From Ideonella alba (GTDB lineage: Bacteria > Pseudomonadota > Gammaproteobacteria > Burkholderiales > Burkholderiaceae_C), in the NCBI RefSeq assembly GCF_018069875.1, contig NZ_JAGQDF010000001.1:372001-436000 (forward strand): a DNA stretch of 64,000 nt. Direction: 5' to 3'. Made by a program: the position numbers and the translations under genes. The notes under the pieces are model-generated. The model was not told the DNA's origin. It saw only the letters and a list, made by a program, of their open reading frames with translations, and ran no database searches. Shown piece by piece: positions 19,910-39,460 of this stretch; position 1 is the stretch's first letter; every line of letters begins with the position of its first letter.

Positions 19910-19933
19910 CGGCAGCGCCCTCAGGCGCTGCCG
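19910..19933. terminator. bidirectional hairpin between convergent genes
   Basis: GGCAGCGCC (19911-19919) pairs perfectly with GGCGCTGCC (19924-19932), extended by a C-G pair to 10 bp, with the 4-base loop CTCA. The loop contains the stop codon of the flavoprotein gene (19921-19923 on the minus strand), so the hairpin ends both converging transcripts and lies partly in coding sequence. No T-run follows on either side. Confidence 0.55.
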
Positions 19934-21231
19934 TGCTTGGTCTCGAAGCGGATGCCGATCTCCTGCAGCAGCGGGGTTGGCAGCACGCCCCCGGCGCAGA
20001 TGATCACCGCCTGGTTGTCCAAGGTACGGGTCATGCCGTCGGCGCGGCGCAGCAGCACCTCGCCGGGCGTGATGCGCTCGACCTGCGAGCCCAACTGCAC
20101 GTCCACACGGCCCGCCTGCTGCAACGCGGCCAGCGTGTCGCGGTTCTTGGCCTTGACGCGTGAGAAGGCCTCGCCGCGGTAGCTCAGCGTCACCTGCGTG
20201 CCCGCTTCGCCGGCCAAGGCGATCGCCGCCTCCAGCGCACTGTCGCCGCCGCCCACCACCAGCACCGCCTGGCCGGCGTACTGCACCGGATCAACCAGCC
20301 GGTAGGCCACCTTGGGCAGGTCCTCGCCCGGCACGTCGAGCGTGCGCGGCGTGCCGCGCCGGCCGATGGCCAGCAGCACGCTGCGGGCGCGCCAGATGCG
20401 CCGGCCGGTCTGCACCTCGAAGCCGCCATCATCGAGCGCACGCACACCGGTCATGCGTTCGCCGTATTGCAGCGGCAACTGATGCTGCAGCGTCACGCCG
20501 TGCCAGAAGGCCAGCAGGTCCTCCTTGCTGATCTCGTTCATCTTCACCAGCCCCACCAGCGACAGCTTCACCGGCGCGGTCATCGCCACCTTCTGGCGCG
20601 GGTAGTGGAAGATCGAGCCGCCCAGCGAGTTTTCCTGCTCCAGGATCGCGAAGCGGTGGCCGCGCTCGAGCGCGGCCAGGCCGGCGCTCAGGCCGGCCGG
20701 CCCTGCGCCCACGATCAGCACATCCAGTTCGTCAGCGTCCACGGCCCGCGGTCGTCCGCCGGCGATGGCCTCCATCGCCTGGCGGCCCTGCTCGGCGGCC
20801 TTGCGGATCAGGCCCATGCCGCCCAGCTCGCCGGCGATGTAGATGCCCGGCACATTGGTCTGGAAGTCGGGTTGCAGCAGCGGGATGTCGACGCCGCGCC
20901 GCGCGGTGCCGAAGACCAGGCTGATCGCGTCGAAGGGACAGGCCGCGTGGCAGGCGCCGTGGCCGATGCAGGCCGAGGCGTTGATCAGCACCGCCTTGCC
21001 GCCGACGATGCCCAGCGCCCCCTCGGGACAGTCGCGCACGCAGGTGCCCGAGCCGATGCAGCGCGCCGGGTCCACCACCGGGTGCAGCGTGGCCGGCTCG
21101 TTCAGGCCGGCCGCCACGCTCTGCGCATGCGCCTGCGCGTCCAGGCGTTGCCGGCGCCGACGCCAGCCCAGATGCAGACCCACGGCCAGCAGCAGCACCA
21201 CCGCATACGGTGCGATCAGGCTCAGACCCAT
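19921..21231 (-). CDS. membrane-anchored iron-sulfur flavoprotein, NAD(P)H-type oxidoreductase
   Basis: The 436-residue protein has one N-terminal membrane helix (residues 5-22) followed by basic residues, then a ferredoxin-like domain, then a thioredoxin-reductase-like FAD/NAD(P) module. FAD binds at VGAGPAGLSAGLAALERG and NAD(P) at VVGGGDSALEAA. The two cluster motifs read CIGSGTCVRDCP and CIGHGACHAACP, so each has Ser or His where the second cysteine of a CxxCxxCxxxCP site normally stands. It is the last gene of the ccm/cytochrome train, 16 bp after ccmI. A role moving electrons between NAD(P)H and the membrane or periplasmic cytochromes, or supplying reductant for heme attachment, is inference. 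Confidence 0.78.
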   Translation of the reverse strand: MGLSLIAPYAVVLLLAVGLHLGWRRRRQRLDAQAHAQSVAAGLNEPATLHPVVDPARCIGSGTCVRDCPEGALGIVGGKAVLINASACIGHGACHAACPFDAISLVFGTARRGVDIPLLQPDFQTNVPGIYIAGELGGMGLIRKAAEQGRQAMEAIAGGRPRAVDADELDVLIVGAGPAGLSAGLAALERGHRFAILEQENSLGGSIFHYPRQKVAMTAPVKLSLVGLVKMNEISKEDLLAFWHGVTLQHQLPLQYGERMTGVRALDDGGFEVQTGRRIWRARSVLLAIGRRGTPRTLDVPGEDLPKVAYRLVDPVQYAGQAVLVVGGGDSALEAAIALAGEAGTQVTLSYRGEAFSRVKAKNRDTLAALQQAGRVDVQLGSQVERITPGEVLLRRADGMTRTLDNQAVIICAGGVLPTPLLQEIGIRFETKHGSA

Positions 21232-21247
21232 GGCGACTCCGCGGGGC

Positions 21248-22462
21248 TCAGCGCACCTCGCGCTCGATGACGATGCGCAGCCCGCTGGCGCCGGGCGCCA
21301 CGCTGGCGCTCAGGCCTTCCAGATCACCCGGCTGCGGCATCGCCTGGCCCGACTTGGACACGCGCGCTCCCACCACCACCGCAGGCGCGCCCGACAGCCG
21401 CGCGGCGGGGCTCATGGCCATCGAGTCGTCCAGCGTGAAGTCGGCCGGCAGGTCGCGCGCGCGCTTCTTCAGGATGGCCAGCGGCATGCGCGAGCCTTCG
21501 GCCGGGCGGGCGAAGATGAACACGGTGTCGTCCGGCGCGGCCTTGGCGGCCAGGGCCGCCGACAGCTCGACCCGGCCGCTGACCGAGGCGCCGGCCGCGG
21601 CCACCGGCGTGGCCGGCGCCGGCGACGCCTCGGCCGCTGGCAGTCCGGCGGCCTGACGGGCCTCGGCCAGCGCGCTCTGCAGCTGCTTGACCAGGTCGGA
21701 GTCCGGCGGGCCCACCTTGACCGCGCGTTCCCAGTGGCGCACCGCGGTCTTGAGGTCGCCGTTGTCGAAGGCCAGCGAGCCGGCCAGGGCCAGCGCCTTC
21801 AGGTTGTCGGGCTCGGCCTTCAGGGCGGCGGCGATCAGCTGGGTCGGCTCGCCCTGGAAGCTGCGGCCATTGACCATGGCCAGCGCGTCAGCCAGGTCGG
21901 CCAGCGCCTGGCCATTGGCGGGCTGCAGGGCCAGCACCTTGCGGTAGGCCGGCACGGCTTCGCTGAAGCGGCCCAGCACCGAATACGAGCGACCCAGCAT
22001 CAGCCAGCCTTCGGCATCGTCCGGCTTGGCCTTCAGGCGTTCGGTCAGCGACGCGAGCATGTCCTCGATCTGCTGCGTGCCCATGGCGTGCGGCGCCTGG
22101 CCCGGCGCGGCGCCGGTCTCGGCCGGGGCCGCCGCCGGGCTGCCCGGCTGAACCGACCAGCCCGGCAGGTTGCCGCGCCAGGCGTACATCGCGGCGCCGA
22201 ACAGCAGCACGAAACCGGCCATCGCCAGCGCGGTGCGGCGGCTGACCCGCGGTGCAGCGGGGGTGGGGGCGGCTGGCGCTGCCGCAGTGGCCGCGGGGGC
22301 CGGGGTCGCCGCGGCCGGGCTGGCCATCACGGCGTCCACCAGGCGGCGTTCAAGCTCGGCCCGGGCGGTGGCGGCCGCCTCGGGGGACAGGGCGCCGCTG
22401 GTGGCCAGGGCGTCGATTTGCCGCAGCTGGTCTTTCAGCGCGGCGATGGCATCAGTGGTCAT
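21248..22462 (-). CDS. ccmI: cytochrome c biogenesis protein CcmI
   Basis: The 404-residue protein has an N-terminal helical segment, an Ala/Pro-rich linker and one membrane helix near residues 78-94. TPR repeats follow at about 125-260 (for example EGWLMLGRSYSVLGRFSEAVPAYRKVL, 27 residues, split in function as a helix pair), then a beta C-terminal domain. CcmI holds apocytochromes for the CcmF/CcmH heme ligation complex. It overlaps ccmH by 4 bp. The short cytoplasmic N-terminus before the membrane helix is atypical, since many CcmI proteins have two membrane helices. Confidence 0.9.
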   Translation of the reverse strand: MTTDAIAALKDQLRQIDALATSGALSPEAAATARAELERRLVDAVMASPAAATPAPAATAAAPAAPTPAAPRVSRRTALAMAGFVLLFGAAMYAWRGNLPGWSVQPGSPAAAPAETGAAPGQAPHAMGTQQIEDMLASLTERLKAKPDDAEGWLMLGRSYSVLGRFSEAVPAYRKVLALQPANGQALADLADALAMVNGRSFQGEPTQLIAAALKAEPDNLKALALAGSLAFDNGDLKTAVRHWERAVKVGPPDSDLVKQLQSALAEARQAAGLPAAEASPAPATPVAAAGASVSGRVELSAALAAKAAPDDTVFIFARPAEGSRMPLAILKKRARDLPADFTLDDSMAMSPAARLSGAPAVVVGARVSKSGQAMPQPGDLEGLSASVAPGASGLRIVIEREVR

Positions 22463-22914
22463 GATCGGGGCAATTCACTCTGGCCCTCGTCGGGCGTCTC
22501 GGGGTCGAAGGCCTCGTCGGGCAGGCGGGCGCGGCGGCGCAGCAGCCAGCCCAGGCCCAGCAGGGCGCCCAGGCTCAGCAGCGCCGGCCCGCCCCACAGC
22601 AGCGCGGTGCGGGCGTTCAGCGGCGGCTTGTAGAGCACGAAGTCGCCATAGCGGTCGGTCATGAAGCTGCGCACCTGCTCGTCGGTCTTGCCGGCGGCCA
22701 GCTGCTCGCGGATCTGCTGGCGCAGGTCCACGGCCAGGCCGGCATGCGAGTCGGCCACGGTCTGGTTCTGGCAGACCAGGCAGCGCAGCTCGGTGGCGAT
22801 CGCCATCATCCGCGCCTCCAGCGCCGGGTCGTCAGCCACCGAGCGGGCTTCACCCGCCCAGGCGTTCAGGGTGGCGGCCAGCAGCGCGCTGGCGATGAGC
22901 AGTCGTCTAGCCAT
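22459..22914 (-). CDS. ccmH: cytochrome c biogenesis protein CcmH
   Basis: The 151-residue protein has a signal peptide (cleavage near residue 20), the redox motif LRCLVCQNQ (C45 and C48) and one C-terminal membrane helix at about 105-123. CcmH keeps apocytochrome CXXCH cysteines reduced and forms the heme-ligation module with CcmF and CcmI. Overlaps with ccmG (8 bp) and ccmI (4 bp) show tight coupling. Confidence 0.95.
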   Translation of the reverse strand: MARRLLIASALLAATLNAWAGEARSVADDPALEARMMAIATELRCLVCQNQTVADSHAGLAVDLRQQIREQLAAGKTDEQVRSFMTDRYGDFVLYKPPLNARTALLWGGPALLSLGALLGLGWLLRRRARLPDEAFDPETPDEGQSELPRS

Positions 22915-23437
22915 TGAGTTGCTTCAGCAGCGGTTCGATCTTGTCGCGCAGGACCTCGGGCGTGACCGGGCCGATGTGCTTCATGCGCACCACGCCCTGG
23001 GCGTCGATGACGAAGGTCTCGGGAACGCCGTAGACGCCATAGTCCAGGCCGATGCGGCCGTCGGGGTCGAAGATCGAGGTGGTGTAGGGGTTGCCCAGCT
23101 GGCGCAGCCACTGCAGGCCGTCGGCGCGCTGGTCCTTGTAGTTCAGGCCGATCAGCTTGACCGTCTGGCCCGGTCGGCGCGACCACTCGACCAGCACCGG
23201 GTGCTCGTCGCGGCAGGCGCCGCACCAGCTGGCCCAGACATTGAGCACCCAGGCACGACCCAGCAGGTCTTCGCGGCTGATGCGCTGCTGCGCGTCGGCC
23301 AGCGTGGGCGCCGCGAACGGCGGGGCCGACTTGCCGACCAGCGGCGACGGCACCTCGCGCGGGTCGCGCGACAGGCCGACGAACAGGAAACCGGCCAGCA
23401 CCAGGAACAGCGCCAGCGGAATAAGCAGCTTCTTCAT
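22907..23437 (-). CDS. ccmG: thiol:disulfide interchange protein CcmG/DsbE
   Basis: The 176-residue membrane-anchored thioredoxin-fold protein has an N-terminal helix (residues 4-21) and the active site WCGACRDEHP with C72 and C75, followed by the family's GVYGVPETFVID cis-proline region. CcmG reduces apocytochrome or CcmH disulfides in the periplasm. It overlaps ccmF by 4 bp. Confidence 0.95.
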   Translation of the reverse strand: MKKLLIPLALFLVLAGFLFVGLSRDPREVPSPLVGKSAPPFAAPTLADAQQRISREDLLGRAWVLNVWASWCGACRDEHPVLVEWSRRPGQTVKLIGLNYKDQRADGLQWLRQLGNPYTTSIFDPDGRIGLDYGVYGVPETFVIDAQGVVRMKHIGPVTPEVLRDKIEPLLKQLNG

Positions 23438-25422
23438 GCCGGGGCTCCCTGCGCTGCGCTGGCCGCGCTGGCCGTGCTGGTGGCGCGGCGCGCGCTGCGG
23501 TAGCGGCGGTCGCTGACGGCCAGCGCGCCGCCCAGCGACATCAGCACGCAGCCCAGCCAGATCCAGGTGATCATCGGCTTGTGCTGCACGCGCAGTGTCC
23601 AGGCGCCGTCGGGCAGGGCCTCGCCCATCGAGACATACAGGTCGCGCGCCAGGTTGGTGTCGATCGCGGCCTCGGTCATCGGATTGCTCTGCACGCGGTA
23701 GATGCGTTTTTGCGGCGTCAGCGTGGCCACCACGGCGCCGTTGCGGGTGACCTCGACCGTGCCCTGCATCGCGCGGTAGTTGGGGCCGGGCACCTCGTCC
23801 AGCGACTTCAGCGTGAACTGGTAGCCACCGACCTGGGTGCTGTCGCCGGGCATCATGCGCACGTCGCGCTCGGTCTCGTGGGTGCGCACCACCGTCACGC
23901 CCAGGATGAAGGCCGCCACGCCCAGGTGGGCCAGCAGCATGCCGCCCTGTGCGCGGCCGATCTGCCGCAGCGCCTGCATCGCCCGGCCGGCGCGGGCGGC
24001 CGGCAGCAGGCGCTCAGCCAGGTCGGTCAGCACGCCGGCAGCGACCCAGTAGGCCATCAGGTAGCCCAGCACCGAGCCGAAGGAGGCGCGCCCCGCCAGC
24101 ACCGCCGTGGCGGCGGCGGCCAGCACCGTGACCACGGCCGCCCAGCGCACGCGGCGCGCCAGTGACGGGATCTCGTCGCCCTTCCAGCGCGCCAGCGGGC
24201 CCACGCCCAGCAGGAAGATCATCGGCGCCATCAGGCCGGTGAAGACCTGGTCGAAGTAGGGCGGGCCCACCGAGATCTTGCCCAGGCCCATCGCATCCAG
24301 GAACAGCGGGTAGAGCGTGCCCAGCAGCACCGCGCCGCAGGCGGCCGCGAACAGCATGTTGTTGGCCAGCAGCGCGGCCTCCTTGGACACCGCGGCAAAG
24401 CGCTGGCCCAGGCCCACGTGGCTGGCGCGCCAGGCGTAGAGCAGCAGCGACGCGCCCACCACGATCACCAGGAAGCCCAGGATGAACAGGCCGCGGCGCG
24501 GGTCGGTGGCGAAGGCATGCACGCTGGACAGCACGCCCGAGCGGACCAGGAAGGTGCCCAGCAGCGACAGCGAGAACGCGACGATGGCCAGCAGCACCGT
24601 CCAGGCCTTGAAGCTGCCGCGCTTCTCGGTCACCGCCAGCGAGTGGATCAGCGCCGTGCCCAGCAGCCAGGGCATGAAGGAGGCGTTCTCCACCGGGTCC
24701 CAGAACCACCAGCCGCCCCAGCCCAGCTCATAGTAGGCCCAGGCGCTGCCCAGCGCGATGCCCAGGGTCAGGAAGATCCAGGCCGCCACCGTCCAGGGGC
24801 GCGACCAGCGCGCCCAGGTGGCGTCCAGGTGGCCGCCGATCAGCGCCGCGATCGCGAAGGCATAGGCCACCGAGAAGCCCACGTAGCCCATGTAGAGCAT
24901 CGGCGGGTGGAAGACCATGCCCGGGTCCTGCAGCAGCGGGTTCAGGTCGCGGCCGTCCGGGGCGGCGGGAATCAGGCGATCAAAGGGGTTGGAGGTGAAC
25001 AGCGTGAAGGCCAGGAAGCCCACGCCGATCCAGCCCATCAGCGCCAGCACGCGCGCCATCACGGCCTCGGGCAGCGAGCGTGAGAACGCCGCCACCGCGA
25101 GCGACCACACCGACAGCATGCCCACCCACAGCAGCAGCGAGCCCTCGTGGCCGCCCCAGACGCCGGCCAGCCGGTAGGCCAGCGGCAGGGCCGAGTTCGA
25201 ATTGGTGGCCACGTACAGCACCGAGAAGTCGTGCCGCACGAACGACGCCGCCAGACAGCCCAGCGCGATGAACACCAACAGGGCCTGCCAGGCCGCCAGC
25301 GGACGGCCCAGGGCCATCCAGTCAGCGCGGCCGCGCTGCGCGCCCATCAGCGGCATCACGCCTTGCAGCAGGGCCACGCCCAGCGCCAGGATCAGGGCCA
25401 GGTGGCCGAGTTCAGGGATCAC
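23434..25422 (-). CDS. ccmF: heme lyase subunit CcmF
   Basis: The 662-residue polytopic protein has more than a dozen hydrophobic helices and the periplasmic tryptophan-rich WWD domain [19 protein letters not shown] near residues 235-253. CcmF takes heme from holo-CcmE and attaches it to CXXCH motifs together with CcmH and CcmI. Length is normal. It overlaps ccmE and ccmG by 4 bp each. Confidence 0.96.
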
Positions 25423-25886
25423 TTCGGGCCTCCTTGGGGCACCACCAGCGTCTCGCTGGGGGCCGGCGCCTGGCCGGCCTTCTTCAGGGCTTCAGCCGCC
25501 TCGGGCGGCATGTAGTTCTCGTCGTGCTTGGCCAGCACTTCCTTGGCCATGAAGCCGCCGTCCGGGCCCAGCGTGCCCTGCGCGACCACGCCCTTGCCCT
25601 CCTTGAAGAGGTCGGGCAGCGTGCCGTCGAAGCGCACCGGCACCTCGCGCACCGTGTCGGTGACGACGAACTGGGCGGTGATGCCCTCGCGGCTGACGCT
25701 GCCGGCCTTGACCAGGCCGCCCAGGCGGAAGGTGCGCTCCTTCGGCGCCTCGCCCGCGGCGATCTGGCTGGGCGTGTAGAAGAACACCATGTTGCTGCGG
25801 AAGGCATTCAGCACCAGCGCCGCGATGCCCGCCAGCGCCAGCAGCACCACGCCGATGATGGTGAATCGCTTCTGGCGCGGCGTCAT
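25419..25886 (-). CDS. ccmE: heme chaperone CcmE
   Basis: The 155-residue protein has an N-terminal membrane anchor (residues 8-28) and an OB-fold. The covalent heme-binding His is H121 in [12 protein letters not shown], with Y125 as the usual second ligand. It carries heme from the CcmABCD complex to CcmF. It overlaps ccmD (ATGA) and ccmF by 4 bp. Confidence 0.96.
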
Positions 25887-26047
25887 GCCTCAGCCCCTTC
25901 GCGTGCGGCAGCGCGGGCACGGGCCAGGCGCCGCCGCGAGGTGATCGCATCCACCGCCATCACCAGCACGGTGAAGGCATAGGCGCCCCAGACAAAGCGG
26001 CCATGACCGCCCATGGCCAGGAAGGCGTCCAGTGAGTCCCACTGCAT
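25883..26047 (-). CDS. ccmD: heme exporter small subunit CcmD
   Basis: The 54-residue product begins [18 protein letters not shown] and continues with one membrane helix ([17 protein letters not shown]) and a basic tail ([12 protein letters not shown]). That is the standard CcmD layout. CcmD helps release holo-CcmE from CcmABC. It lies 2 bp after ccmC and overlaps the ccmE start by 4 bp, exactly where CcmD sits in other ccm operons. Confidence 0.93.
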
Positions 26048-26049
26048 TC

Positions 26050-26802
26050 TCAGGATTCCTCGGTGTGTCGGTAGCGCTGGGCCACCCAGTCGGATTCGGA
26101 TTCAAGCTCCAGCACCAGCGCACGGGCGCGGCTGAAGATCACGGCGAAGGCGAAGGCCCAGAAGGCGATCGTCATCAGGCCCATGGCCTGCAACATCGTC
26201 TGCGCCATCTTCGGGGCCGCCGTCATGCTGACAGAGGCGCCCTGGTGCAGCGTGTTCCACCAGCGTACCGAAAAATAGATGATGGGCACATTAAGAGCCC
26301 CTACCAGCGACAGCAGCGCGCCGGCCTGGGCCGAGCGGCGCGGGTCGTCGATCGCCTCGACCAGCGCGATGTAGCCCAGGTAGAGCAGCAGCAGGATCAG
26401 CTCCGAGGTCAGCCGCGCATCCCACACCCACCAGGTGCCCCAGGTGGGCTGGCCCCACAGCGCACCGGTGACCAGGGCCACCGCGGTGAACATCGCCCCG
26501 GTGGGCGCGATGGCGCGCGCCAGCGTGCTGCCCATGCGGGCGTTCAGGCCCCAGCCCAGCGCGCTCCAGAAGGCGATCGCCAGGTACAGCAGCATGCTCA
26601 TCCAGGCGGCGGGCACGTGGATGAAGATGATGCGGTAGGCCTCGCCCTGCTGGAAGTCGGTGGGGGCGACGAAGAAGCCCATCCACAGACCCGCCAGGCC
26701 GGTGAGGGCGGCCACCGCCCAGCACCAGGGCGTGGCGGCGGCGGCCAGCGCATCGAAGCGCGACGGGGCGGCGAAGGTGGTCCAGCGCAGGGGAGCGTTC
26801 AT
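26050..26802 (-). CDS. ccmC: heme handling protein CcmC
   Basis: The 250-residue protein has six membrane helices and the WWD signature WGTWWVWDARLTSELILL near residues 124-141. CcmC delivers heme to CcmE. ATG 26802 lies 4 bp after the ccmB stop; a TTG at 26814 would overlap ccmB by 8 bp and is a possible alternative start. Neighbour order ccmA-B-C-D-E is canonical. Confidence 0.95.
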   Translation of the reverse strand: MNAPLRWTTFAAPSRFDALAAAATPWCWAVAALTGLAGLWMGFFVAPTDFQQGEAYRIIFIHVPAAWMSMLLYLAIAFWSALGWGLNARMGSTLARAIAPTGAMFTAVALVTGALWGQPTWGTWWVWDARLTSELILLLLYLGYIALVEAIDDPRRSAQAGALLSLVGALNVPIIYFSVRWWNTLHQGASVSMTAAPKMAQTMLQAMGLMTIAFWAFAFAVIFSRARALVLELESESDWVAQRYRHTEES

Positions 26803-26806
26803 GGCG

Positions 26807-28065: not shown

Positions 28066-30247
28066 GCCGGTAACCCAGGTAATAGAACACGCGTGTCGAG
28101 TTGTCGTTCAGTGTCGGGCTGGTGGTCTTGCTGGATTCGGCGCTGACCTCGCCCTCGATGACCCATTTCTCGCCGCCGCGCCAGGCCAGCCGCAGGCCCG
28201 GGCTCCAGCGCAGGGTCTTCACGCCGCCGGTGCCATTGTCACCGTAGATGCGCAGCGACGGCTCCAGCTGCAGCCGCGCCATGGGCACCGACATGTTGTT
28301 GTAGCTCAGCTGCCAGCCGTTGTGACCGGGCTGCTTGAACAGCGTCAGGCTGGCCACGTGGGTGTCGCGCTCGGAGTAGAGGTTGGTGCCGATCAGCTGC
28401 AGGCTGCCCGACAGGATGTTGCCCGAGGCCGGGCTGCCGGGGTAGTTGATCGAGGGCACCGGCGCGATCGCGCCAACGCTGGTCAGGCGGATGTCGGCGC
28501 CCACCTGCCACTGCGGCGTGACCGGGTGGGTCACGCCCACCAGGCCCTGCTTGGAGTAGGCGGTCGTGGCCGCCACCGAGTGGCGCAGCTCGCTCAGGCT
28601 GCGGTAGGCCAGCAGGTCGGACAGGCGCCGCGGCAGCGCGCGGCTGGGGTCGGCGAAGAACAGCGCGTTGCCCAGCATCAGCAGCGGCACGGCGCGGTAG
28701 TCGGCCAGGATGTTGAGGGTGGTGCCGCCCGACAGCGTGGCCGTGCCCTGCAGCGAGGCCACGTTGGTGCCACGCAGCGTCAGGTCGTATTCATACTGGC
28801 TGAAGACCGAGGTGGCCCCTTCGAACCAGCGCATGTCCAGGCCCATGGCGCGGCGATCGACCTCGCCGTCGATCTGCTGCTGCATCACGTAGAGGCTGGC
28901 GCCGAGGTTCTCGGTCAGCGCCTCGGCGTCCAGCGAGAGGCCGCCGAAGTAGCGCCGCGTGTCGAGCAGGTCGTCGGTGGGCTGGCCGGCGACGGCGCCG
29001 ATCTTCCACTTCGGCTTGAAGGTCCAGCTGCCCTGGATGCCGTCGAAGCGGCCCAGCACGCCACCGCCCAGACCGCTTTGCCGACCCACCCGGGCCTGCA
29101 GGCCGGGGCCGGCCTCCTTCCAGTCGACATAGGCCGCGGTCAGGCGGTTGCGCGACGGCCGGCCGGGCATCATTTCGTAGGTGTGGTTGTCGCGGAAGGC
29201 GGCGCGCAGGTCGCGCTCGGCGTCGCGCTGGCGCCAGTTCAGGTCGATCGACGACGAGACCTGCTTCTGGTCGGTGCCCGACAGCGTGGTGTCGGAAATG
29301 ATCTTGGGCAGCTGGCCCTCGAGCGGCGTGTCCTTGAGCTGGGTCTGGGTCTGCGAGGCACCACCGTAGAAGTACTGCGACCACGAGCCGCTGAGCTGGC
29401 TGGTGGCGGCGCGGCGCGCGGCGTCGGCCGGCTCGGCCTGCGCCAGGGTGGGTGCCGGAGCGCTGCCGCCGCCCAGTTCGGCCAGCAGGCCGCGCATCCG
29501 GGGCACGCCGTTGCCCGAGGGGTAGAGCTGCAGGTACAGCTCGGCCTCGCGCTGCGCGCCGGCACGGTCGCCCTTGGCCAGACGCGCCGCGGCGATCGCC
29601 TCCTGGGCCTCGGGGGTGCGGGCGTTGGGTGGCAGGTTCAGGGCTTCGTTGAGCTGCTCGATCGCCAGATCCGGCTCGCCCCGCGTCAGCGATTCGCGGG
29701 CCAGTCCGATCAGCTGGCCGGCCCGGGCGGTGACCTCGGCGTCGCTGGGCGTGCCGATGACCGGCGCCGGCTCGATCAGGGCCGAGGAGGCGCTGCTGAG
29801 CGCCTCGCCCTGGCCTTCGAGCACCACATCGATCGAGCGGTTGTCGCGGCCGGCGCGCGCGCGCAGGCGCACGCCCTTGTCGATGCGCACGACGAGCTTG
29901 CGGTTGGTCAGCTCGCGCGCCGTGCCGTCCTCGGTGACGACGACGCGCGGCAGCGCACCGGCCTGCAGCTGACGCCGCTCGCCGTCGATGAAGTTGGGCT
30001 GCTCGCGGGCGGTCACCACGTCGTAGTAGATCTGCACCAGGTCATCGCCGCCCGAGGCCACGCTGCGGCGGAACTGCACCTGCACCGTCATGCGGATCGT
30101 CATCACCGCGTCCTTGCCCTCGCGGCGCAAGGCCAGCTCGTCGATGACCTGGGCCTGCACGGCGGGTGCGCCCAGGGCGCCCAGCGCGGTCAGGGCGGCC
30201 AGGGCCAGCGGTCGGTGCAGTCGGCGGGTGGGGTGGTGGTGGGTCAT
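28055..30247 (-). CDS. outer-membrane beta-barrel protein with AMIN-like and TPR-like N-terminus
   Basis: The 730-residue protein has a signal peptide (residues 1-32). A beta-rich region at about 35-150 resembles an AMIN domain (LVQIYYDVV, RKLVVRIDKGVRLRARAG), and helical TPR-like repeats follow at about 175-245. From about 270 onward come alternating amphipathic strands rich in aromatic residues, consistent with a beta-barrel; the last residues are YYLGYRLDL. No heme motif is present. It sits between the giant cytochrome gene (13 bp upstream) and ccmA (11-bp overlap) and has a strong GAGGAGG ribosome site. I infer that it is the porin of a porin-cytochrome conduit, comparable in role to MtrB/PioB but not recognisably homologous by eye. 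Confidence 0.72.
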   Translation of the reverse strand: MTHHHPTRRLHRPLALAALTALGALGAPAVQAQVIDELALRREGKDAVMTIRMTVQVQFRRSVASGGDDLVQIYYDVVTAREQPNFIDGERRQLQAGALPRVVVTEDGTARELTNRKLVVRIDKGVRLRARAGRDNRSIDVVLEGQGEALSSASSALIEPAPVIGTPSDAEVTARAGQLIGLARESLTRGEPDLAIEQLNEALNLPPNARTPEAQEAIAAARLAKGDRAGAQREAELYLQLYPSGNGVPRMRGLLAELGGGSAPAPTLAQAEPADAARRAATSQLSGSWSQYFYGGASQTQTQLKDTPLEGQLPKIISDTTLSGTDQKQVSSSIDLNWRQRDAERDLRAAFRDNHTYEMMPGRPSRNRLTAAYVDWKEAGPGLQARVGRQSGLGGGVLGRFDGIQGSWTFKPKWKIGAVAGQPTDDLLDTRRYFGGLSLDAEALTENLGASLYVMQQQIDGEVDRRAMGLDMRWFEGATSVFSQYEYDLTLRGTNVASLQGTATLSGGTTLNILADYRAVPLLMLGNALFFADPSRALPRRLSDLLAYRSLSELRHSVAATTAYSKQGLVGVTHPVTPQWQVGADIRLTSVGAIAPVPSINYPGSPASGNILSGSLQLIGTNLYSERDTHVASLTLFKQPGHNGWQLSYNNMSVPMARLQLEPSLRIYGDNGTGGVKTLRWSPGLRLAWRGGEKWVIEGEVSAESSKTTSPTLNDNSTRVFYYLGYRLDL

Positions 30248-30260
30248 GTGTCGGGCCTCC

Positions 30261-32639
30261 TCAGTCCCATTCGGTATACGTGCTGCCCTTGCCGCCCAGG
30301 GGCTTGTGGCAGCCGGATTCGGAGCAGTCGAGCGGGGTCTTGCCCTTGGCCTCGTGGGTCAGCGACTTGCGCTCCATGTTCCCCAGGTAGCTGGTCCCGC
30401 TGGCGTGGCAGGCCTTGCACCAGCCCGCGCCGCCACCCAGGCTGCCGTTGTGGTTCATGCGCATCGTTCCCCAGCTGGCGGTGCTGTTGTGGCAGGCCTT
30501 GCAGTCCATGGCCGCGCCGTTGAGCAGCTGGGTCTCGGGGATGTGGTTGGTCGGCTTGGCCTGCAGGCCCTGGCTCACGTAGCTGCTGATGTGGCAGCCC
30601 TTGCAGGTCTGGCTGGCCACGGCCGAGTGGTTCATCGTCACCGAGGTGCCGAAGCTCACCTGCGAGCGGTGGCAGGCGTCGCACTTGGCCGTGGGCACGG
30701 TCACCGGGATGTGGGTGGCCGGCTTGCCGCGCGCGACGGTGCCGTTGTGGCAGTTGTCGCAGGTGCCCGAGCCGATCTGGTCGGTGGCCGAGTGGCGGTA
30801 CTGCACGTTGTTCCAGCTGGACGTGGAGCGGTGGCAGTCCTCGCAGACGCTCACGCCGTTGTGCACCGGGGTGGCGGGCTTGCCCACCGCGCCCAGGTAG
30901 CTGCCGGTGTGGCAGGTCCCGCACTGCGTGCTGAGGCTGTAGTAGGCGTGGATGCGGCCCGGATTCCAGCTGGCGTAGCCACCCTTGTGGCAGGCGTCGC
31001 AGTTGGCCGAGGCCATCACCGCGATCTGCTGGTAGGGCACGTGGTTGGTCGGCTTGCCGTCGGCCGGCGGGTAGCGGCCGGTGTGGCAGCTGGCGCACTG
31101 CGCGGTGACCACGGTCTGGGTGTGGTTCCACTTGCTGGGCTTGAAGGCCGTGACGGTGTGGCAGGCCCAGCAGTTGGTGTTGCCCACCGGGATGTGGTTG
31201 GCGCCCTTGCCGATGGCCTGGCTGCCGTTGTGGCAGCCGCCGCAGTTGGTGGTGGCGCCGAAGCCGCTGTGGTCGGGCTTGCCAGTGGTGGCCCAGCTGC
31301 CGGTGCTGTGGCAGTCCTCGCACTTGGTCACGCCGTTGTGCACCGGGGTGGCCGGCTTGCCCACCGCACCCAGGTAGCTGCCGGTGTGGCAGGTGCTGCA
31401 CAGGCTGCTGACGTTGAAGTACAGGTGGAAGCGGCCGGGGTTCCAGCTGTTGTAGCCGGCCTTGTGGCAGGCATCGCAGTTGGCGCTGGCCGAGGGCGGG
31501 ATCAGCTGATAGGGCACGTGCGTGCCCGGCTTGCCCTCGGCCGGCGGGTAGCCGCCGGTGTGGCAGGTGGCGCACTGGGCGGTGACCACCACCTGGGTGT
31601 GGTTCCACTTGCTGGGCTTGAAGGCGGTGACCGTGTGGCAGGCCCAGCAGTTGGTCAGGCCCACCGGGATGTGCTGGGCGCCCTTGCCGATCGCCTGGCT
31701 GCCGTTGTGGCAGTTGGCGCAGTTGGTGGTGCTGCCGTAGGTCGAGTGGTCCGGCTTGCCATTGCTGTCCCAACTGCCGGTCTTGTGGCAGTCCTCGCAC
31801 TTGGTCACGCCGTTGTGGATCGGCGTGGCCGGCTTGCCCACGGCGCCCAGGTAGCCGCCGGTGTGGCAGGTGCTGCACTGGCTGGTGACGTTGTAGTAGG
31901 CGTGGAAGCGACCCGGGTCCCAGCTGCCGTAGCCGGCCTTGTGGCAGGCGTCGCAGTTGGCGCTGGCCGACACGCTGACCTGCTGGTAGGGCACGTGGTT
32001 GCCCGGCTTGCCGTCGGCCGGCGGGTAGCGGCCGGTGTGGCAGCTGGCGCATTGCGCGGTGACCACGGTCTGGGTGTGGTTCCACTTGCTGGGGCGCCAG
32101 CTGCTGACACTGTGGCAGCTGAAGCAGTTGGTGGCGCCCACCGGGATGTGGCTGGGGCCCTTGTCGCTGGCCTGGCTGCCGTTGTGGCAGTTGGCGCAGG
32201 TGGTGGAGGCGCCGAAGCCGCTGTGGTCGGGCTTGCCGTTGCTGGCCCAGCTGCTGGTGCTGTGGCAGCCTTCGCAGTTGCTCACGCCGTTGTGCACGGG
32301 GGTGGCGGGCTTGCCCACCGCGCCCAGGTAGCTGCCGGTGTGGCAGGCGCTGCACTGGCTGCTGACGTTGTAGTAGGCGTGGAAGCGGCCCGGGTCCCAG
32401 CTGCCGTAGCCGGCCTTGTGGCAGGCGTCGCAGTTGGCGCTGGCCGACACGCTGACCTGCTGGTAGGGCACGTGGTTGCCCGGCTTGCCGTCGGCCGGCG
32501 GGTAGCGGCCGGTGTGGCAGCTGGCGCACTGCGCGGTGACCACGGTCTGGGTGTGGTCGGCTTGCCGTCGGCCGGCGGGTAGCGGCCGGTGTGGCAGCTG
32601 GCGCACTGCGCGGTGACCACGGTCTGGGTGTGGTTCCAC
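30261..32639 (-). pseudogene. giant multiheme cytochrome c, C-terminal part (frame-broken)
   Basis: This is the downstream piece of a cytochrome gene whose frame is broken at 32557/32558. In the cytochrome frame it encodes 27 CXXCH sites and one CX4CH (CSESGCH) near the C-terminus, with no membrane segment. The first 27 residues from the ATG at 32639 are out of frame and meaningless, so this piece has no credible start or signal peptide of its own. It is made of 159-residue, six-heme modules that repeat every 477 bp (31081, 31558, 32035, 32512), then degenerates toward the C-terminus. Joined to the N-terminal piece it would give about 1,150 residues and about 42 hemes. It may be a real lesion or an assembly error in near-identical repeats. 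Confidence 0.8.
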
Positions 32640-33059
32640 TTGCTGGGCTTCCAGGTGCCGGTGCTGTGGCAGCTGAAGCAGTTGGTGCTGCCCACCGGGA
32701 TGTGACTGGCGCCCTTGTCACTGGCGGTGCTGCCGTTGTGGCAGCTGGCGCAGTTGGTGGTGGCGCCAAAGCCCGAGTGGTCGACCTTGGACACCGACCA
32801 GTTGCCGCTGCTGTGGCAGGCCTCGCAGGGCGCGGTGGTGGCGATGTGGTTGCCGGGCTTGCCGGGGGCCGACGCGTAGCTGCCGTTGTGGCAGGTGGCG
32901 CACTGGCCCGTGGGGCTGAAGCTGGCATGGAAGCGCGCGCCGCTCCAGCTGGCATAGCCGCTCTTGTGGCAGGCGTCGCAGTTGGCGCTGGCCGAGACGC
33001 TGACCTGCTGGTAGGGCAGGTGATTGGACGACCTGCCGTCCGCCGGCGGATAGCTGCCG
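31081..33059. repeat. 477-bp tandem modules inside the giant cytochrome gene
   Basis: The marker GTGTGGCAGCTGGCGCA (minor variants) begins at 31081, 31558, 32035, 32512, 32589 and, degenerate, 33060. Spacings are 477, 477, 477, 77 and 471 bp. Each full unit encodes 159 residues with six CXXCH motifs. Units are nearly identical in long stretches at the DNA level, so unequal recombination or slippage can change heme number. Confidence 0.85.
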
Positions 33060-33718
33060 TTGTGGCAGCTGGCGCACTGGGCCGCGACCGGCTGCTGGGT
33101 GTGGTTCCAGCGCGAGGGCTTCCAGCTGCCGGTGCCGTGGCAGCTCAGGCAGTTGGCGCTGCCGCTGGGGATGTGGTTGGTCGATTTGCCGCTCGCCTGG
33201 CGACCGTTGTGGCAGCTGGCGCAGTCGGTGGCCGAGGTGTAGCCGCTGTGGTCGGGCCGTGCGCCCGCCCAGGTGGCGGTGATGTGGCAGCTGTCGCAGC
33301 TGGCGTTGGTGGCCAGGTGGCCCGCGTTCTTGCCGGTGGCGGTGACGCCGTTGTGGCAGCTGGCGCAGGTGCCGGCCGCGGTGCCTGCATGGTCGAAGCG
33401 GGCGTTGTCGAAGCTGCGGGTACTGTGGCAGCTGTCGCAGCGCTGGGTGGTCTGCACGTGCTGCGTCGACTTGACCACGTTGTTGCGCGACCAGTTGCTG
33501 CCGCTGGTGTGGCAGGTCGCGCAGTCGCGCGGCGTGCCCTTGAGCTGCCCATTGAGGTGACAGGACTCGCAGCGCACGTTCGCATGGGCGCCCTGCAGCG
33601 CGAAGCCGGTGCTCAGGTGATCAAAGTCCTTGCGGCCGGTCTGGGCCGCCACCGGCGACGCGGCAAGCAGCCCGGCCCACAGCAGCAGCAGGCAGAGCAA
33701 TCGGTGCAGCAGGCTCAT
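32282..33718 (-). pseudogene. giant multiheme cytochrome c, N-terminal part (frame-broken)
   Basis: From ATG 33718 this frame encodes a signal peptide (residues 1-26, ending PVAAQ) and 14 CXXCH heme sites in about 387 residues. After the junction at 32558 it reads about 91 out-of-frame, Ala/Pro/Thr/Arg-rich residues to a stop at 32282. The cytochrome frame continues at the other side of the junction to 30261. Its start overlaps the stop of the 24-heme cytochrome gene by 4 bp (33715-33718), so both are translated together. Local motifs such as CASCHNG, CDACHKSGY and CFSCHSTG place it in the doubled-CXXCH, NapC-independent multiheme group. It is exported, and periplasmic or outer-surface location is inferred. 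Confidence 0.8.
32481..32634. repeat. perfect 77-bp tandem duplication that breaks the cytochrome frame
   Basis: Bases 32481-32557 and 32558-32634 are identical. Because 77 is not a multiple of three, the cytochrome frame shifts at the junction. 77 bp also equals one 477-bp module minus 400 bp, and the junction shows the short homology TGGT shared by both module positions. The sequence therefore fits either a new duplication or a 400-bp deletion inside an extra module. Confidence 0.9.
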
Positions 33719-35562
33719 CGTGGCACTCCCGAGGCAGGGCTGGGTGACGGGGATGTGGGGCGGCGCGCCAGCAGTTCGCGCCAGCCGCTGGTCTGGTGGC
33801 AGGTCTCGCAACGCAGGCCGAAGCCGCCGTCATGGACGTCGTCGCCGCGGTGGCAGGACTGGCAGCTGTCGCCCAGCGGCGCGGTCTTGCGCCCGGCCGG
33901 CGCCGGCGCGCGGTGGCAGGCCTCGCAGGTCAGCGGCTGGTGCTTGCCGGTCAGCGGGTAGCGGGTCTGACGGGTGTGGTCGAACTGCGCCAGCTTCCAG
34001 TGGCGCGCGTTGTGGCAGCTCTCGCAGGCCGGGCCCTGGGCACCCTTGTGGCGGTCGTCGGCGCGGTGGCAGCCCAGGCAGTCGCGCGGTGCATCGCGGT
34101 AGCGCAGCGTCTTGTGGCAGGCACCGCACTCGACCTTCACGTGGGCACCCAGCAGCGCGAAGCGGGCCAGCTTGTGGTCGTAGGGCGCGTCCTTCCAGCG
34201 GCGGTCGTTGTGACAGCTCTCGCAGACCGTTCCCAGCTGGCCCTCGTGCTTGTCGTCCTTGCGGTGGCAGCCGATGCAGTCGCGCGGCGTGTCCCGGTAG
34301 TGCTTCAGGTCCTGGTGGCAATCGGCGCAGCGGACCTTGGCGGCGGCGTGGGCGCCGCGCAGCGTGAAGCGGGCGACATCGTGGTCGAAGCGCGGGATCT
34401 TCCAGCTGCGCTCGCCGTGGCAGGCCGCACAGGCCTCGCCGACGTTGCCGGCATGCTTGTCGTCCTGACGGTGGCAGCCGATGCAGCTGCGCGGCGCGTC
34501 GCGGTAGACCGGTGTGCCCTTGGGTCCTGGCTTGTGGCAGGCCTCGCACTTCGCATCGGCGTGCTTGCCCAGCAGCGGGAAGCGGGCGCGGTCGTGGTCG
34601 AAGCGGCCGGTCTGCTTCCAGTCGTTCTCCTGGTGGCAGGCGGCGCACTCGGTGCCCAGGCTGCCCTGGTGCTTGTCGTCCTTGCGGTGGCAGGACAGGC
34701 AGTCGGTGGCGGTCTTCTCGCGGTACAGCGCGCCGGTGTGGCAGCTGTCGCAGCGCACCGCACGGTGCTTGCCGCGCAGCGGGTAGCGGGTCTCGCTGTC
34801 GTGGTTGAAGCTGATGGTTTTCCAGGACTTCTCGCCGTGGCAGCTCTCGCACTTCTCGCCGTAGCGGCCCTTGTGCTTGTCGTCGGCCTTGTGGCAGCCC
34901 ACGCAGGTGGTGGGCACGCCGGCGTACTTCGCCTTGGGGTGGCAATCGGCGCAGGCCACGTCCGCGTGCTTGCCCTTGAGCGCGAAGCTGGTGGTCGCGT
35001 GGTCGAAGCGGGCCTCTTTCCAGTTATTCTCGGTGTGGCAGTCGGCGCACTTCGTGCCCAGCGAGCCCTTGTGAACATCGTCCTTGCGATGGCACGCCTG
35101 GCAGTCCTGCGGTGCCTCGGCCCAGCGCTTGCCGGGCAGATGGCACTTGGCGCACTCGACCTGGGCATGGGCCTGGCGCAGCACCCAGTCCGTCTCGCGG
35201 TGGTCGAAGGCCTTGGTGTCAAGCTGCACGATGCGCGCCTCGCGGCCCTTGTGGTCGGTGTGGCAGCTGCGGCAGGCCTGGGGCTTCTGGCGCCCGTGGA
35301 AGCCGGTCTTCTGGCGCAGGTCCTGGCCGATCGGCTTGTGGCAATCGGCGCACAAGCGGTCCTGCGCCGCGCGGTCGAAGCGCACGTGGCAGCTGGCGCA
35401 GTCGTCCTGCCACTTGGCGTGCGACTGGGTCAGCACCCCCGGCGACAGCGCCGACTCCAGCGACTGCGCCGCCGCCGGTGTCAGCAGCGCCAGCCACAGC
35501 GCGGCCACAGCGGCGAACAGGCGCCACAGCCACGGGTAGGGGCGGGACAGGCATCGCGGCAT
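33715..35562 (-). CDS. 24-heme periplasmic cytochrome c
   Basis: The 615-residue protein has a signal peptide (residues 1-32, ending PAAAQ) and 24 CXXCH motifs, with no lipobox or membrane helix after cleavage. A unit of three hemes recurs about every 68-75 residues in the form C-x-GCH..DDKHKG..GxxCxSCH..W..FDH..RFxLxGKH..CxxCH, so the protein is a chain of repeats. The His-rich spacing (FDH, GKH) supplies distal heme ligands. It overlaps the giant cytochrome by 4 bp and lies 6 bp after the cytochrome b gene. A role as periplasmic electron carrier between inner membrane and outer-membrane components is inferred. Confidence 0.88.
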   Translation of the reverse strand: MPRCLSRPYPWLWRLFAAVAALWLALLTPAAAQSLESALSPGVLTQSHAKWQDDCASCHVRFDRAAQDRLCADCHKPIGQDLRQKTGFHGRQKPQACRSCHTDHKGREARIVQLDTKAFDHRETDWVLRQAHAQVECAKCHLPGKRWAEAPQDCQACHRKDDVHKGSLGTKCADCHTENNWKEARFDHATTSFALKGKHADVACADCHPKAKYAGVPTTCVGCHKADDKHKGRYGEKCESCHGEKSWKTISFNHDSETRYPLRGKHRAVRCDSCHTGALYREKTATDCLSCHRKDDKHQGSLGTECAACHQENDWKQTGRFDHDRARFPLLGKHADAKCEACHKPGPKGTPVYRDAPRSCIGCHRQDDKHAGNVGEACAACHGERSWKIPRFDHDVARFTLRGAHAAAKVRCADCHQDLKHYRDTPRDCIGCHRKDDKHEGQLGTVCESCHNDRRWKDAPYDHKLARFALLGAHVKVECGACHKTLRYRDAPRDCLGCHRADDRHKGAQGPACESCHNARHWKLAQFDHTRQTRYPLTGKHQPLTCEACHRAPAPAGRKTAPLGDSCQSCHRGDDVHDGGFGLRCETCHQTSGWRELLARRPTSPSPSPASGVPR

Positions 35563-35568
35563 CCGGTG

Positions 35569-36438
35569 TCAGTAGGCGTGCACGGCGAACACGTGCACCA
35601 GCGCGCAGATCACCATCAGGTAGACAAAGGGCAGGTGCAGCACATGCCACAGCGAGAACAGCCGTTCCCAGGACGCGAAGTGCGCCACCCGCAGCACCGC
35701 GGCCAGGTGGCGTGCCGCCAGCGCGCGCCACTCCTGGCGCAGCTCGCGCAGTGCCCGCGTGCGGCCCTGCTCACGCTCGACCTGGCGGCAATGGCGGTCG
35801 ATCTCGCGGCGGGCGGCGCGCAGCACGCCGCGCGAGCGCCACCACAGGCGCAGCATCGGCCAGGGCGAGGCGCCGCTGTGGCGGCGCGGGTCGTCCTCGA
35901 CCGCGTGTTCAAAGGCCAGCAGGCGCGCGGCGGCTTCGGGCGGAAAGCTGGTGGCGTGCGTCAGCGCCTGGTGGCTGCTCTGCACCGATTGCCGCAACTC
36001 GGCCAGTTCCGTGCGGCGCTGGGTCAGGCCGTGGTGAACCTGCACGTACAGGTAGCGGCCGACAATGCCGCTGCCCGCCACCACCAGCATCGACAGCAAG
36101 GCCACCGCCGCGTTGATCGAGCCGATGCGGAAGTTGCAGTGCACCAGCACCAGCCACGGACCCGCCAGACCCAGCAGCATGTGGGCGATGAACCAGGCCC
36201 GGGTGTTGCCCCAGCCGCGCATCCAGCGCACCCGCTTGCGCATCGGGTACAGGAACAGCGCCAGCATCGCCAGGCCGCCCGCCACGCCGATCCAGTAGCC
36301 GGCGTCGGAGCCGGCGTCCAGATCCGCCCAGCGCCCGACCTGCCAGGCGCTGGCCACGCCCAGCAGCACACCGGCGGCCACGGTCAGACCGTGGCGCCAG
36401 GGCGCAGGTTCAGCGGAGCGGAGGGTGGTGGTGTTCAC
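35569..36438 (-). CDS. cytochrome b-like integral membrane protein
   Basis: The 289-residue protein has five likely membrane helices (about 16-33, 46-64, 83-103, 110-132 and 258-285). Candidate heme b ligands lie in AHMLLG, LVHC, VHHG, WHVLHLP and LVHVFAVH. An Arg/Glu-rich soluble loop of about 115 residues (140-255) sits between helices 4 and 5. It resembles cytochrome b561 or ferric-reductase-like electron carriers. The start is GTG 36438. It is the first gene of the long minus-strand train, so it probably links the quinone pool to the multiheme cytochromes; direction of electron flow cannot be read. Confidence 0.75.
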   Translation of the reverse strand: MNTTTLRSAEPAPWRHGLTVAAGVLLGVASAWQVGRWADLDAGSDAGYWIGVAGGLAMLALFLYPMRKRVRWMRGWGNTRAWFIAHMLLGLAGPWLVLVHCNFRIGSINAAVALLSMLVVAGSGIVGRYLYVQVHHGLTQRRTELAELRQSVQSSHQALTHATSFPPEAAARLLAFEHAVEDDPRRHSGASPWPMLRLWWRSRGVLRAARREIDRHCRQVEREQGRTRALRELRQEWRALAARHLAAVLRVAHFASWERLFSLWHVLHLPFVYLMVICALVHVFAVHAY

Positions 36439-39330: not shown

Positions 39331-39363
39331 TCAACATATGTGTTGACAGCACATTCTGTTGAG
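39331..39363. promoter_or_regulatory. palindrome plus TTGACA element upstream of nonaheme cytochrome
   Basis: TCAACATATGTGTTGA (39331-39346) is a 6-bp inverted repeat with a 4-base spacer. A third half-site, TGTTGAG, lies at 39357-39363. TTGACA at 39343-39348 is a perfect -35 hexamer that overlaps the palindrome, so a regulator bound here could block RNA polymerase. No clear -10 sequence is seen, so the promoter is tentative. It lies about 100 bp upstream of the cytochrome start. Confidence 0.45.
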
Positions 39364-39460
39364 CGGAGCATCCGTGTCCAATCCACCTAGATACCCACGC
39401 CCGTTGGGGTATATAGCCGTTCACACCGCACCGGCGATCTGCCCCCGGAGGACCCACACG

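What the first reader, a model, noticed from the sequence alone, without database searches (positions are those of the whole stretch)
19921..36438. A single gene train for a trans-envelope electron conduit with its own cytochrome-maturation system
Fourteen minus-strand genes, overlapping or within about 16 bp of each other, encode in order a cytochrome b-like membrane protein, a 24-heme cytochrome, a giant repeat-built cytochrome, an outer-membrane barrel protein, CcmABCDEFGHI and an iron-sulfur flavoprotein. From memory this resembles the PCC3 porin-cytochrome clusters proposed in neutrophilic iron oxidisers, but here it appears in a Burkholderiales-like genome and carries the whole maturation set. 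The likely role is electron exchange across the outer membrane.
Basis: partly seen in the sequence, partly recalled or inferred. Interest (0 to 1): 0.9.

Follow-up and report, generated by a model that had tools for sequence, protein, structure and literature searches.

The report
PCC3 electron conduit with maturation genes
A bacterium related to Ideonella carries one run of genes for a known but untested kind of protein wire across its cell envelope, together with the machinery that loads the wire with heme and an overlooked iron-sulfur flavin protein that accompanies nearly every such wire in the genomes sampled.

Summary
The gene train is real: 14 minus-strand genes, spaced -11 to +16 bp, for an inner-membrane b-type candidate (IMP), a 24-heme cytochrome, a giant cytochrome, a beta-barrel, CcmA-I and an Fe-S flavoprotein. 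As assembled, the giant gene is broken by an exact 77-bp tandem duplication. Its length equals the assembler's k-mer (11 pairs of contig ends share exactly 77 bp), and two congeners have an intact 40-heme ORF. The first four genes are a PCC3 porin-cytochrome cluster (He et al. 2017), already known from Leptothrix, so the host is not unusual. Not described in the passages I read: (1) the flavoprotein is nearly inseparable from the IMP (31 of 32 IMP+ against 2 of 367 IMP- family genomes; 33 of 34 against 2 of 240 class genomes); (2) ccm is a recurrent neighbour (14 of 25 fully flanked named loci), though the host also has System II; (3) a Bacteroidota plasmid has a similar run headed by System II CcsBA. 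I read it as an outer-membrane conduit with its own heme-loading genes and an NAD(P)H-type inner end. Direction and substrate are untested.

The parts
35569..36438 (-). IMP: PCC3-type inner-membrane protein, candidate two-heme b-type cytochrome
   Evidence: W82-X3-H86-X13-H100, S123-G-X2-G, W264-X3-H268-X13-H282; these residues invariant in 34 aligned sequences, the window's included; no Pfam/NCBIfam hit at E <= 0.001
33715..35562 (-). 24-heme c-type cytochrome, candidate periplasmic subunit
   Evidence: 24 CXXCH, N-terminal hydrophobic segment; Cytochrome_C7 etc.
30261..33718 (-). Giant repeat-built c-type cytochrome gene, split into two frames as assembled (14 + 27 CXXCH; 40 once the duplicate is discounted)
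   Evidence: intact 40-CXXCH ORF in G014 and G015
32481..32634 (.). Exact 77-bp tandem duplication that breaks the giant gene; probable assembly artefact
   Evidence: 2 x 77 bp, 100%; 11 contig-end pairs of the same assembly share exactly 77 bp
28055..30247 (-). Outer-membrane barrel (PCC3 porin): N-terminal beta domain, TPR-like helices, about 22 predicted barrel strands
   Evidence: AlphaFold model pLDDT 80.6, pTM 0.55 (strands counted by me from its list); relatives; generic barrel hits only
27460..28065 (-). ccmA
   Evidence: TIGR01189 above cut-off
26807..27463 (-). ccmB
   Evidence: PF03379, TIGR01190; ATG start
26050..26814 (-). ccmC
   Evidence: TIGR01191 above cut-off
25883..26047 (-). 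ccmD (54 aa)
   Evidence: PF04995 E 4.6e-10
25419..25886 (-). ccmE
   Evidence: PF03100 E 6.1e-35
23434..25422 (-). ccmF
   Evidence: PF16327, TIGR00353 above cut-off
22907..23437 (-). ccmG (thioredoxin-like)
   Evidence: Redoxin/AhpC-TSA and position in operon
22459..22914 (-). ccmH
   Evidence: PF03918 E 5.9e-46
21248..22462 (-). ccmI (CycH-type TPR chaperone)
   Evidence: PF23892, PF23914
19921..21231 (-). Membrane-anchored Fe-S flavoprotein: one N-terminal hydrophobic helix, two Fe-S motifs with Ser61 and His91 at the usual second-Cys positions, TrxR/FNR-like FAD and NAD(P) domains without CXXC

Best explanation
This is a PCC3-type porin-cytochrome conduit encoded with its heme-loading genes. 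Electrons would pass between the cell exterior and the inner membrane along the giant 40-heme cytochrome, the barrel and the 24-heme periplasmic cytochrome, and cross the inner membrane on two b hemes of the IMP. The Fe-S flavoprotein, anchored by one helix, is most likely the cytoplasmic partner of the IMP, passing electrons between the b hemes and NAD(P)(H) through two Fe-S clusters and FAD, so the pair would work like a split ferric-reductase/NOX-type enzyme. CcmA-I, co-encoded, would supply the heme attachment that a 64-heme pair of cytochromes demands, beside the host's System II. Shown: gene content, order, motifs, co-occurrence and recurrence of the linkage. Inferred: single transcript, cell locations, heme b binding, electron path, partner, direction and substrate.
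For: The PCC3 features that could be tested are met, apart from a clean count of five helices. Flavoprotein-IMP co-occurrence 31/32 vs 2/367 and 33/34 vs 2/240; the one class miss, G622, has a flavoprotein fragment beside its IMP; same contig within 20 kb in 29 of 33 class genomes and 18 of 31 family genomes. The flavin part matches YpdA and FNR/TrxR-like structures and has GXGXXG and GGGDSA motifs but no CXXC, arguing for electron rather than disulfide transfer. The genome's weaker IMP relative on contig C4 lies between a decaheme cytochrome and an NAD-binding/2Fe-2S reductase. CcmF in 31/32 IMP+ vs 137/367 IMP- family genomes. In the genus sample (16 genomes) the flavoprotein is in 5, and these 5 have CcmF (G002 only a fragment); of the other 11, two have a CcmF, 47 and 50% identical to the window's; ResB in all 16. 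A Bacteroidota plasmid has CcsBA-IMP-flavoprotein-23-heme-40-heme-538 aa protein in one run.
Against: No expression, localisation or biochemical data. Hydropathy gave 4, not 5, helices for the IMP at the threshold used. ccm is not always linked: within 20 kb of the IMP in 9 of 31 family genomes having both, and far away in G022, G129 and G379, which have 1, 1 and 3 contigs. In other genomes the flavoprotein lies near ccmF while the IMP is on another contig, so a role in cytochrome maturation is possible. Relatives of the flavoprotein at 46-50% identity occur in four virus-classified contigs with no heme ORF, IMP or barrel hit within the flank held. The RuBisCO neighbour of the second IMP would suit electron uptake as well. 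Shared ancestry inflates the Fisher values.
Confidence: 0.66

Rival explanations
1. PCC3 with a quinone-linked inner end, as He et al. proposed: the IMP exchanges electrons with the quinone pool, and the flavoprotein is an accessory.
For: Published model for PCC3 (passages seen); the IMP has the two HX13H pairs that the paper likens to quinone-active b cytochromes.
Against: It does not explain why an Fe-S flavoprotein accompanies nearly every IMP in two samples.
Confidence: 0.22
2. The flavoprotein is a maturation factor, supplying reductant for heme or apocytochrome thiols of the giant cytochromes, so the train is 'conduit plus maturation set' only.
For: It lies within 10 kb of ccmF in 14 family genomes and directly follows ccmI here; its fold is TrxR-like.
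Against: CcmF is in 168 of 399 family genomes, the flavoprotein in 33; it has no CXXC; in the Emticicia plasmid it lies between the IMP and the cytochromes.
Confidence: 0.15
3. The cluster is decaying: the giant cytochrome gene is truly frameshifted in this strain.
For: The supplied sequence has the frameshift.
Against: Duplication length equals the assembly k-mer seen at contig ends; the 77-mer also occurs exactly elsewhere in the gene, a typical place for such an error; the neighbouring genes of the run are open.
Confidence: 0.06
4. The ccm genes are a housekeeping operon that happens to lie downstream.
For: ccmF is common in the family sample (168 of 399) and often unlinked to PCC3.
Against: All 16 genus genomes have ResB, and CcmF above 60% identity to the window's was seen in the genus only with PCC3 parts; linkage recurs in 14 of 25 fully flanked named loci.
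Confidence: 0.15

Closest known systems
PCC3 porin-cytochrome cluster (He et al. 2017, PMC5566968; Sideroxydans, Leptothrix)
   Same: Porin, giant candidate extracellular cytochrome, >20-heme candidate periplasmic cytochrome, IMP with the published motifs; repeats
   Different: Here followed without a break by ccmA-I and an Fe-S flavoprotein. The main text of that paper has no occurrence of 'flavo', 'ferredoxin', 'FAD', 'maturation' or 'biogenesis'; the CL21 paper counts four genes (passages)
MtrCAB / MtoAB / PioAB
   Same: Barrel plus periplasmic and outer cytochromes as an outer-membrane conduit (general knowledge)
   Different: 24 and 40 hemes instead of 10; barrel of about 22 predicted strands with a TPR-like N-terminal part, and no MtrB-type entry among the 50 structures listed; none of the 14 genes was assigned as CymA-type
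PCC4 (He et al. 2017)
   Same: IMP with the same motifs; some PCC4 clusters have an Fe-S gene beside the IMP and other redox genes (section read)
   Different: PCC4 has periplasmic cytochromes of 4, 5 and 10 hemes and no extracellular cytochrome
YpdA/Bdr and TrxR-type ferredoxin-NADP reductases
   Same: FAD/NAD(P) domain (E 7.2e-38 to 7a7b; Foldseek 1.4e-20 to 7apr)
   Different: Adds a membrane helix and two Fe-S motifs; no CXXC; Ala at the position where, from recall, YpdA has its Cys
System I cytochrome c maturation (CcmA-I)
   Same: Complete set in one run
   Different: Co-encoded with its presumed client cytochromes, in a host that also has System II

Membership tests
PCC3 | Outer-membrane beta-barrel gene beside the cytochrome genes | tested here: met
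   AlphaFold barrel; 80 named relatives kept of 356; heme ORF and IMP context
PCC3 | Periplasmic multiheme cytochrome with about 21 (21-27) hemes | tested here: met
   24 CXXCH and hydrophobic N-terminal segment; location itself not tested
PCC3 | Extracellular multiheme cytochrome with very many hemes and repeats | tested here: met
   40 CXXCH after discounting the duplicate; 477-bp repeats; the single open frame is seen only in relatives; location not tested
PCC3 | IMP of about 300 aa with SGXXG and two WX3HX13H motifs | tested here: met
   289 aa; motifs at 82, 123, 264; motif residues invariant in 34 aligned sequences
PCC3 | Five transmembrane helices in the IMP | tested here: inconclusive
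   Simple hydropathy finds 4 above threshold; no structure of the IMP was predicted
PCC3 | Electron transfer across the outer membrane | not testable with these tools
   Described as functionally unverified in the PCC3 papers seen (passages)
System I maturation | CcmA, B, C, D, E, F, G, H, I all present | tested here: met
   CcmG by redoxin-family hits and position
System I maturation | It matures the PCC3 cytochromes | not testable with these tools
   Only co-occurrence, 31/32 vs 137/367
MtrCAB/MtoAB | Decaheme MtrA-type periplasmic cytochrome | tested here: not met
   24 hemes; NCBIfam decaheme models below their cut-offs (e.g. TIGR03508 33 of 192 bits)
YpdA/TrxR | Redox-active Cys (CXXC of TrxR) | tested here: not met
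   No CXXC in the protein; TIGR04018 156 bits against cut-off 340

The most novel reading that the evidence does not exclude
PCC3 is a self-contained, transferable electron-exchange module of at least five core parts whose inner end is not the quinone pool but a membrane NAD(P)H oxidoreductase made of the IMP and the Ser/His-ligated Fe-S flavoprotein. The module recruits its own heme-attachment machinery: System I in Burkholderiales, System II CcsBA on a Bacteroidota plasmid. Because outward electron flow through a b-heme pair is favoured by the membrane potential, the module may mainly export excess reducing power rather than oxidise iron, in line with the report that both PCC3 clusters are down-regulated on Fe(II) in strain ES-1.
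Probability: 0.33. Interest if true: 0.82.

Novelty: new variant of a known kind. Interest (0 to 1): 0.6.

Why it matters
PCC3 has been proposed since 2017 as a possible iron-oxidation route, and its function remains unverified. A near-obligate Fe-S flavoprotein partner gives it a concrete inner end that can be purified and assayed, and predicts an electron path different from the published model. Co-encoded heme-attachment genes, System I here and System II on a Bacteroidota plasmid, suggest that very large cytochromes bring their own maturation capacity, which bears on how such conduits spread and how to express them in laboratory hosts.

Tried and rejected
Considered and rejected: a biological frameshift in the giant gene (favour assembly error); a claim that ccm linkage is unique to this genome; a claim that the Burkholderiales host is unusual; membership in MtrCAB or PCC4. 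The 9-heme cytochrome at 39347-41140 was considered as part of the system and rejected: no relative at E <= 1e-20 in 19 other genomes, eight of which carry PCC3 parts.

Led nowhere: fold comparison of the barrel (the 50 listed hits are porins, FadL, pilus ushers and a cellulose exporter); IMP search of plasmids (no match); promoter/terminator scan (one promoter-like site on the other strand, terminator-like sites below the shuffled mean); two literature searches with no hit. In one search the rows 'giantN', 'giantC' and 'ccmD' used my mis-framed coordinates, so their identities are not used; the heme-ORF counts of that call do not depend on them. I first counted 4 PCC3+ genomes in the genus from the IMP alone; the flavoprotein search raised this to 5, G002 being a fragmented MAG. 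Genome lists and positions for searches were typed. Cut-offs were chosen after seeing a clear gap: weakest IMP counted 1.3e-63 in the family and 2.1e-49 in the class sample; weakest flavoprotein counted 5.1e-133 and 1.2e-95. Rows not counted: 15 family genomes whose best IMP hit is 4.0e-7 to 3.4e-17, and 13 class genomes whose best flavoprotein-profile hit is 1.0e-62 or weaker, in frames of about 780-860 residues. The family flavoprotein search was run with a limit of 1e-60 and the class IMP search with 1e-20, so weaker rows there were not seen. The place list was cut short, so linkage counts for ccmF could miss weak second copies. The 80 named loci are the best of 356 by similarity to this barrel, so they lean towards its relatives.
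Full report
Observation. Fourteen genes lie on the minus strand with gaps of -11 to +16 bp. All nine Ccm proteins were checked by family models; CcmG is assigned from redoxin-family hits and position. The 24-heme protein has 24 CXXCH motifs and an N-terminal hydrophobic segment.

The giant gene. In the supplied sequence it is not one reading frame. Heme motifs run in one frame from 33571 to 32605 (14 motifs) and continue in another from 32528 to 30419 (27 motifs). The switch is an exact tandem duplication of 77 bp at 32481-32634, 2.0 copies at 100% identity, the only exact tandem duplication with a unit of 25-399 bp found in the window. Three things point to an assembly error. The same 77-mer also occurs exactly at 31050-31126, in the repeats of the same gene. 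Among the 58 readable contig ends of this assembly (14 of 72 are masked), 11 pairs share exactly 77 terminal bases, the mark of a k-mer of 77 (that assemblers leave such ends is general knowledge). G014 and G015 of the same genus have one intact ORF with 40 motifs, which equals 14 + 27 less the one counted twice. G014's contig has the same length as the Ideonella aquatica 4Y11 contig that carries the closest named relative, barrel 93% identical. The giant repeats also break another assembly: in G427 the two halves of the cluster end at contig ends in this gene.

What family it is. He et al. 2017 (PMC5566968; abstract, passages and section 16 seen; supplements not seen) defined PCC3 as a porin, an extracellular cytochrome (median 34 hemes), a periplasmic cytochrome (median 21) and an IMP of about 300 aa; they report five helices, SGXXG and two WX3HX13H motifs for the IMPs. 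The window matches: 40 and 24 hemes, a barrel, and an IMP with all three motifs, invariant in 34 aligned sequences; the helix count stays open. PCC3 is already known from Leptothrix and other Betaproteobacteria and from Leptothrix/Sphaerotilus genomes (PMC13386937, passages), so the Burkholderiales setting is ordinary. Its function is called unverified (PMC12442390, passages), and both PCC3 clusters of strain ES-1 were down-regulated on Fe(II) (PMC8788666, passages).

The flavoprotein. This is the main addition. In a family sample of 399 genomes, 32 have a strong PCC3 IMP and 33 the flavoprotein; 31 have both, one only the IMP (G371) and two only the flavoprotein (G034, G400); these three have 270-290 contigs each. 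In a class sample of 274 genomes, 34 have the IMP and 35 the flavoprotein, 33 both. The IMP-only genome G622 has a flavoprotein fragment next to its IMP. Fisher values (1e-42, 5e-39) ignore shared ancestry; the class sample spans 222 genera, and the two samples share a few genomes. The genes are on one contig within 20 kb in 29 of 33 class and 18 of 31 family genomes. In 25 named barrel loci with full flanks, out of 80 kept of 356 found, the IMP is present in 24, the flavoprotein in 23, ccmF in 14 and ccmI in 19. I found no published mention: the He main text has no 'flavo', 'ferredoxin' or 'FAD', and the CL21 and ES-1 main texts no 'FAD' or '4Fe-4S'. The listings name it in no title or abstract start; most listed papers were not opened, and supplements could not be searched.

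Its build. One N-terminal hydrophobic helix followed by an Arg-rich stretch suggests a cytoplasmic soluble part. Two Fe-S motifs follow, C58-x2-S61-x2-C64-x3-C68 and C88-x2-H91-x2-C94-x3-C98. The position of the usual second Cys is Ser in 31 of 32 and His in 32 of 32 aligned sequences, and both hold in a Bacteroidota relative. That Ser and His bind the clusters is not shown. The rest matches YpdA and ferredoxin-NADP reductases of the TrxR type by sequence and by fold (model pLDDT 82.2; Foldseek), with GXGXXG and GGGDSA motifs and no CXXC. Four virus-classified contigs carry relatives with Cys at the first position and His at the second, and no heme ORF, IMP or barrel hit in the flank held, which is short on one side of L209. 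So the wider family is not tied to PCC3.

The ccm genes. In the family sample CcmF is in 31 of 32 IMP+ and 137 of 367 IMP- genomes. It is within 20 kb of the IMP in 9 of the 31, and within 10 kb of the flavoprotein in 14 genomes, two of which lack a counted IMP. In the genus sample of 16, ResB (System II) is in all 16; the flavoprotein is in 5, all with a CcmF match (a fragment in G002); two of the other 11 have a CcmF, 47 and 50% identical to the window's. Unlinked cases exist: in G022 and G058 the ccm operon lies elsewhere with its own CcmI, yet the PCC3 locus keeps a second CcmI-type ORF. In G014 the train sits between the same neighbours as here.

An independent case. The flavoprotein search of plasmids (E <= 1e-60) hit one record, Emticicia oligotrophica pEMTOL02 (Bacteroidota). 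There CcsBA (ResB plus Cytochrom_C_asm domains), an IMP with both WX3HX13H motifs and SGVVG, the flavoprotein, a 23-heme and a 40-heme cytochrome and a 538-aa protein lie in one run. The last protein matches the barrel profile only at E 0.006 for one sequence, so its identity is open. The layout is similar, with the other maturation system.

Mechanism. Barrel and cytochromes as an outer-membrane wire follows the Mtr precedent (general knowledge). The IMP as a b-type transmembrane carrier follows He et al. That the flavoprotein is its cytoplasmic partner is my inference from co-occurrence, topology and fold. It is supported by the genome's second, weakly related IMP (contig C4), which lies between a decaheme cytochrome and an NAD-binding/2Fe-2S reductase, near a LysR gene and RuBisCO. 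Direction is open. Outward flow is favoured by membrane potential (general knowledge) and fits the ES-1 report; the RuBisCO neighbour of the second IMP would rather suggest uptake.

Verdict. A real, well-formed PCC3 cluster with a ccm set, one probable assembly error, and a newly noticed companion protein. The finding is a variant of a known kind; its interest rests on the flavoprotein and on the recurring maturation genes of either system.

Noticed in passing
window 39347-41140 (+): A 9-CXXCH cytochrome with a signal-like N-terminus about 3 kb from the cluster on the other strand, with no relative at E <= 1e-20 in 19 other genomes searched, 14 of them congeners.
   Followed up: partly
L041 (G000:C4) 8.5-17.5 kb: Decaheme cytochrome, PCC3-IMP-like protein, NAD-binding/2Fe-2S reductase and cation ATPase in one run beside a LysR gene and RuBisCO large subunit.
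   Followed up: partly
L207 (NC_018749.1, 67281-98447): PCC3-like cluster on a Bacteroidota plasmid with System II CcsBA at its head.
   Followed up: partly
L208-L211: Relatives of the Fe-S flavoprotein in contigs classed as viral, in L210 a few genes from a ClpX-like gene, with a canonical first Fe-S motif and His in the second.
   Followed up: partly
L033 17468-18028; L035 11954-13093: A second CcmI-type ORF after the PCC3 barrel although a ccm operon with its own CcmI lies elsewhere in both genomes.
   Followed up: partly
L202 (G249): A PCC3 locus with only ccmA, ccmB and ccmC detected between barrel and flavoprotein, with ccmF elsewhere in the genome.
   Followed up: no
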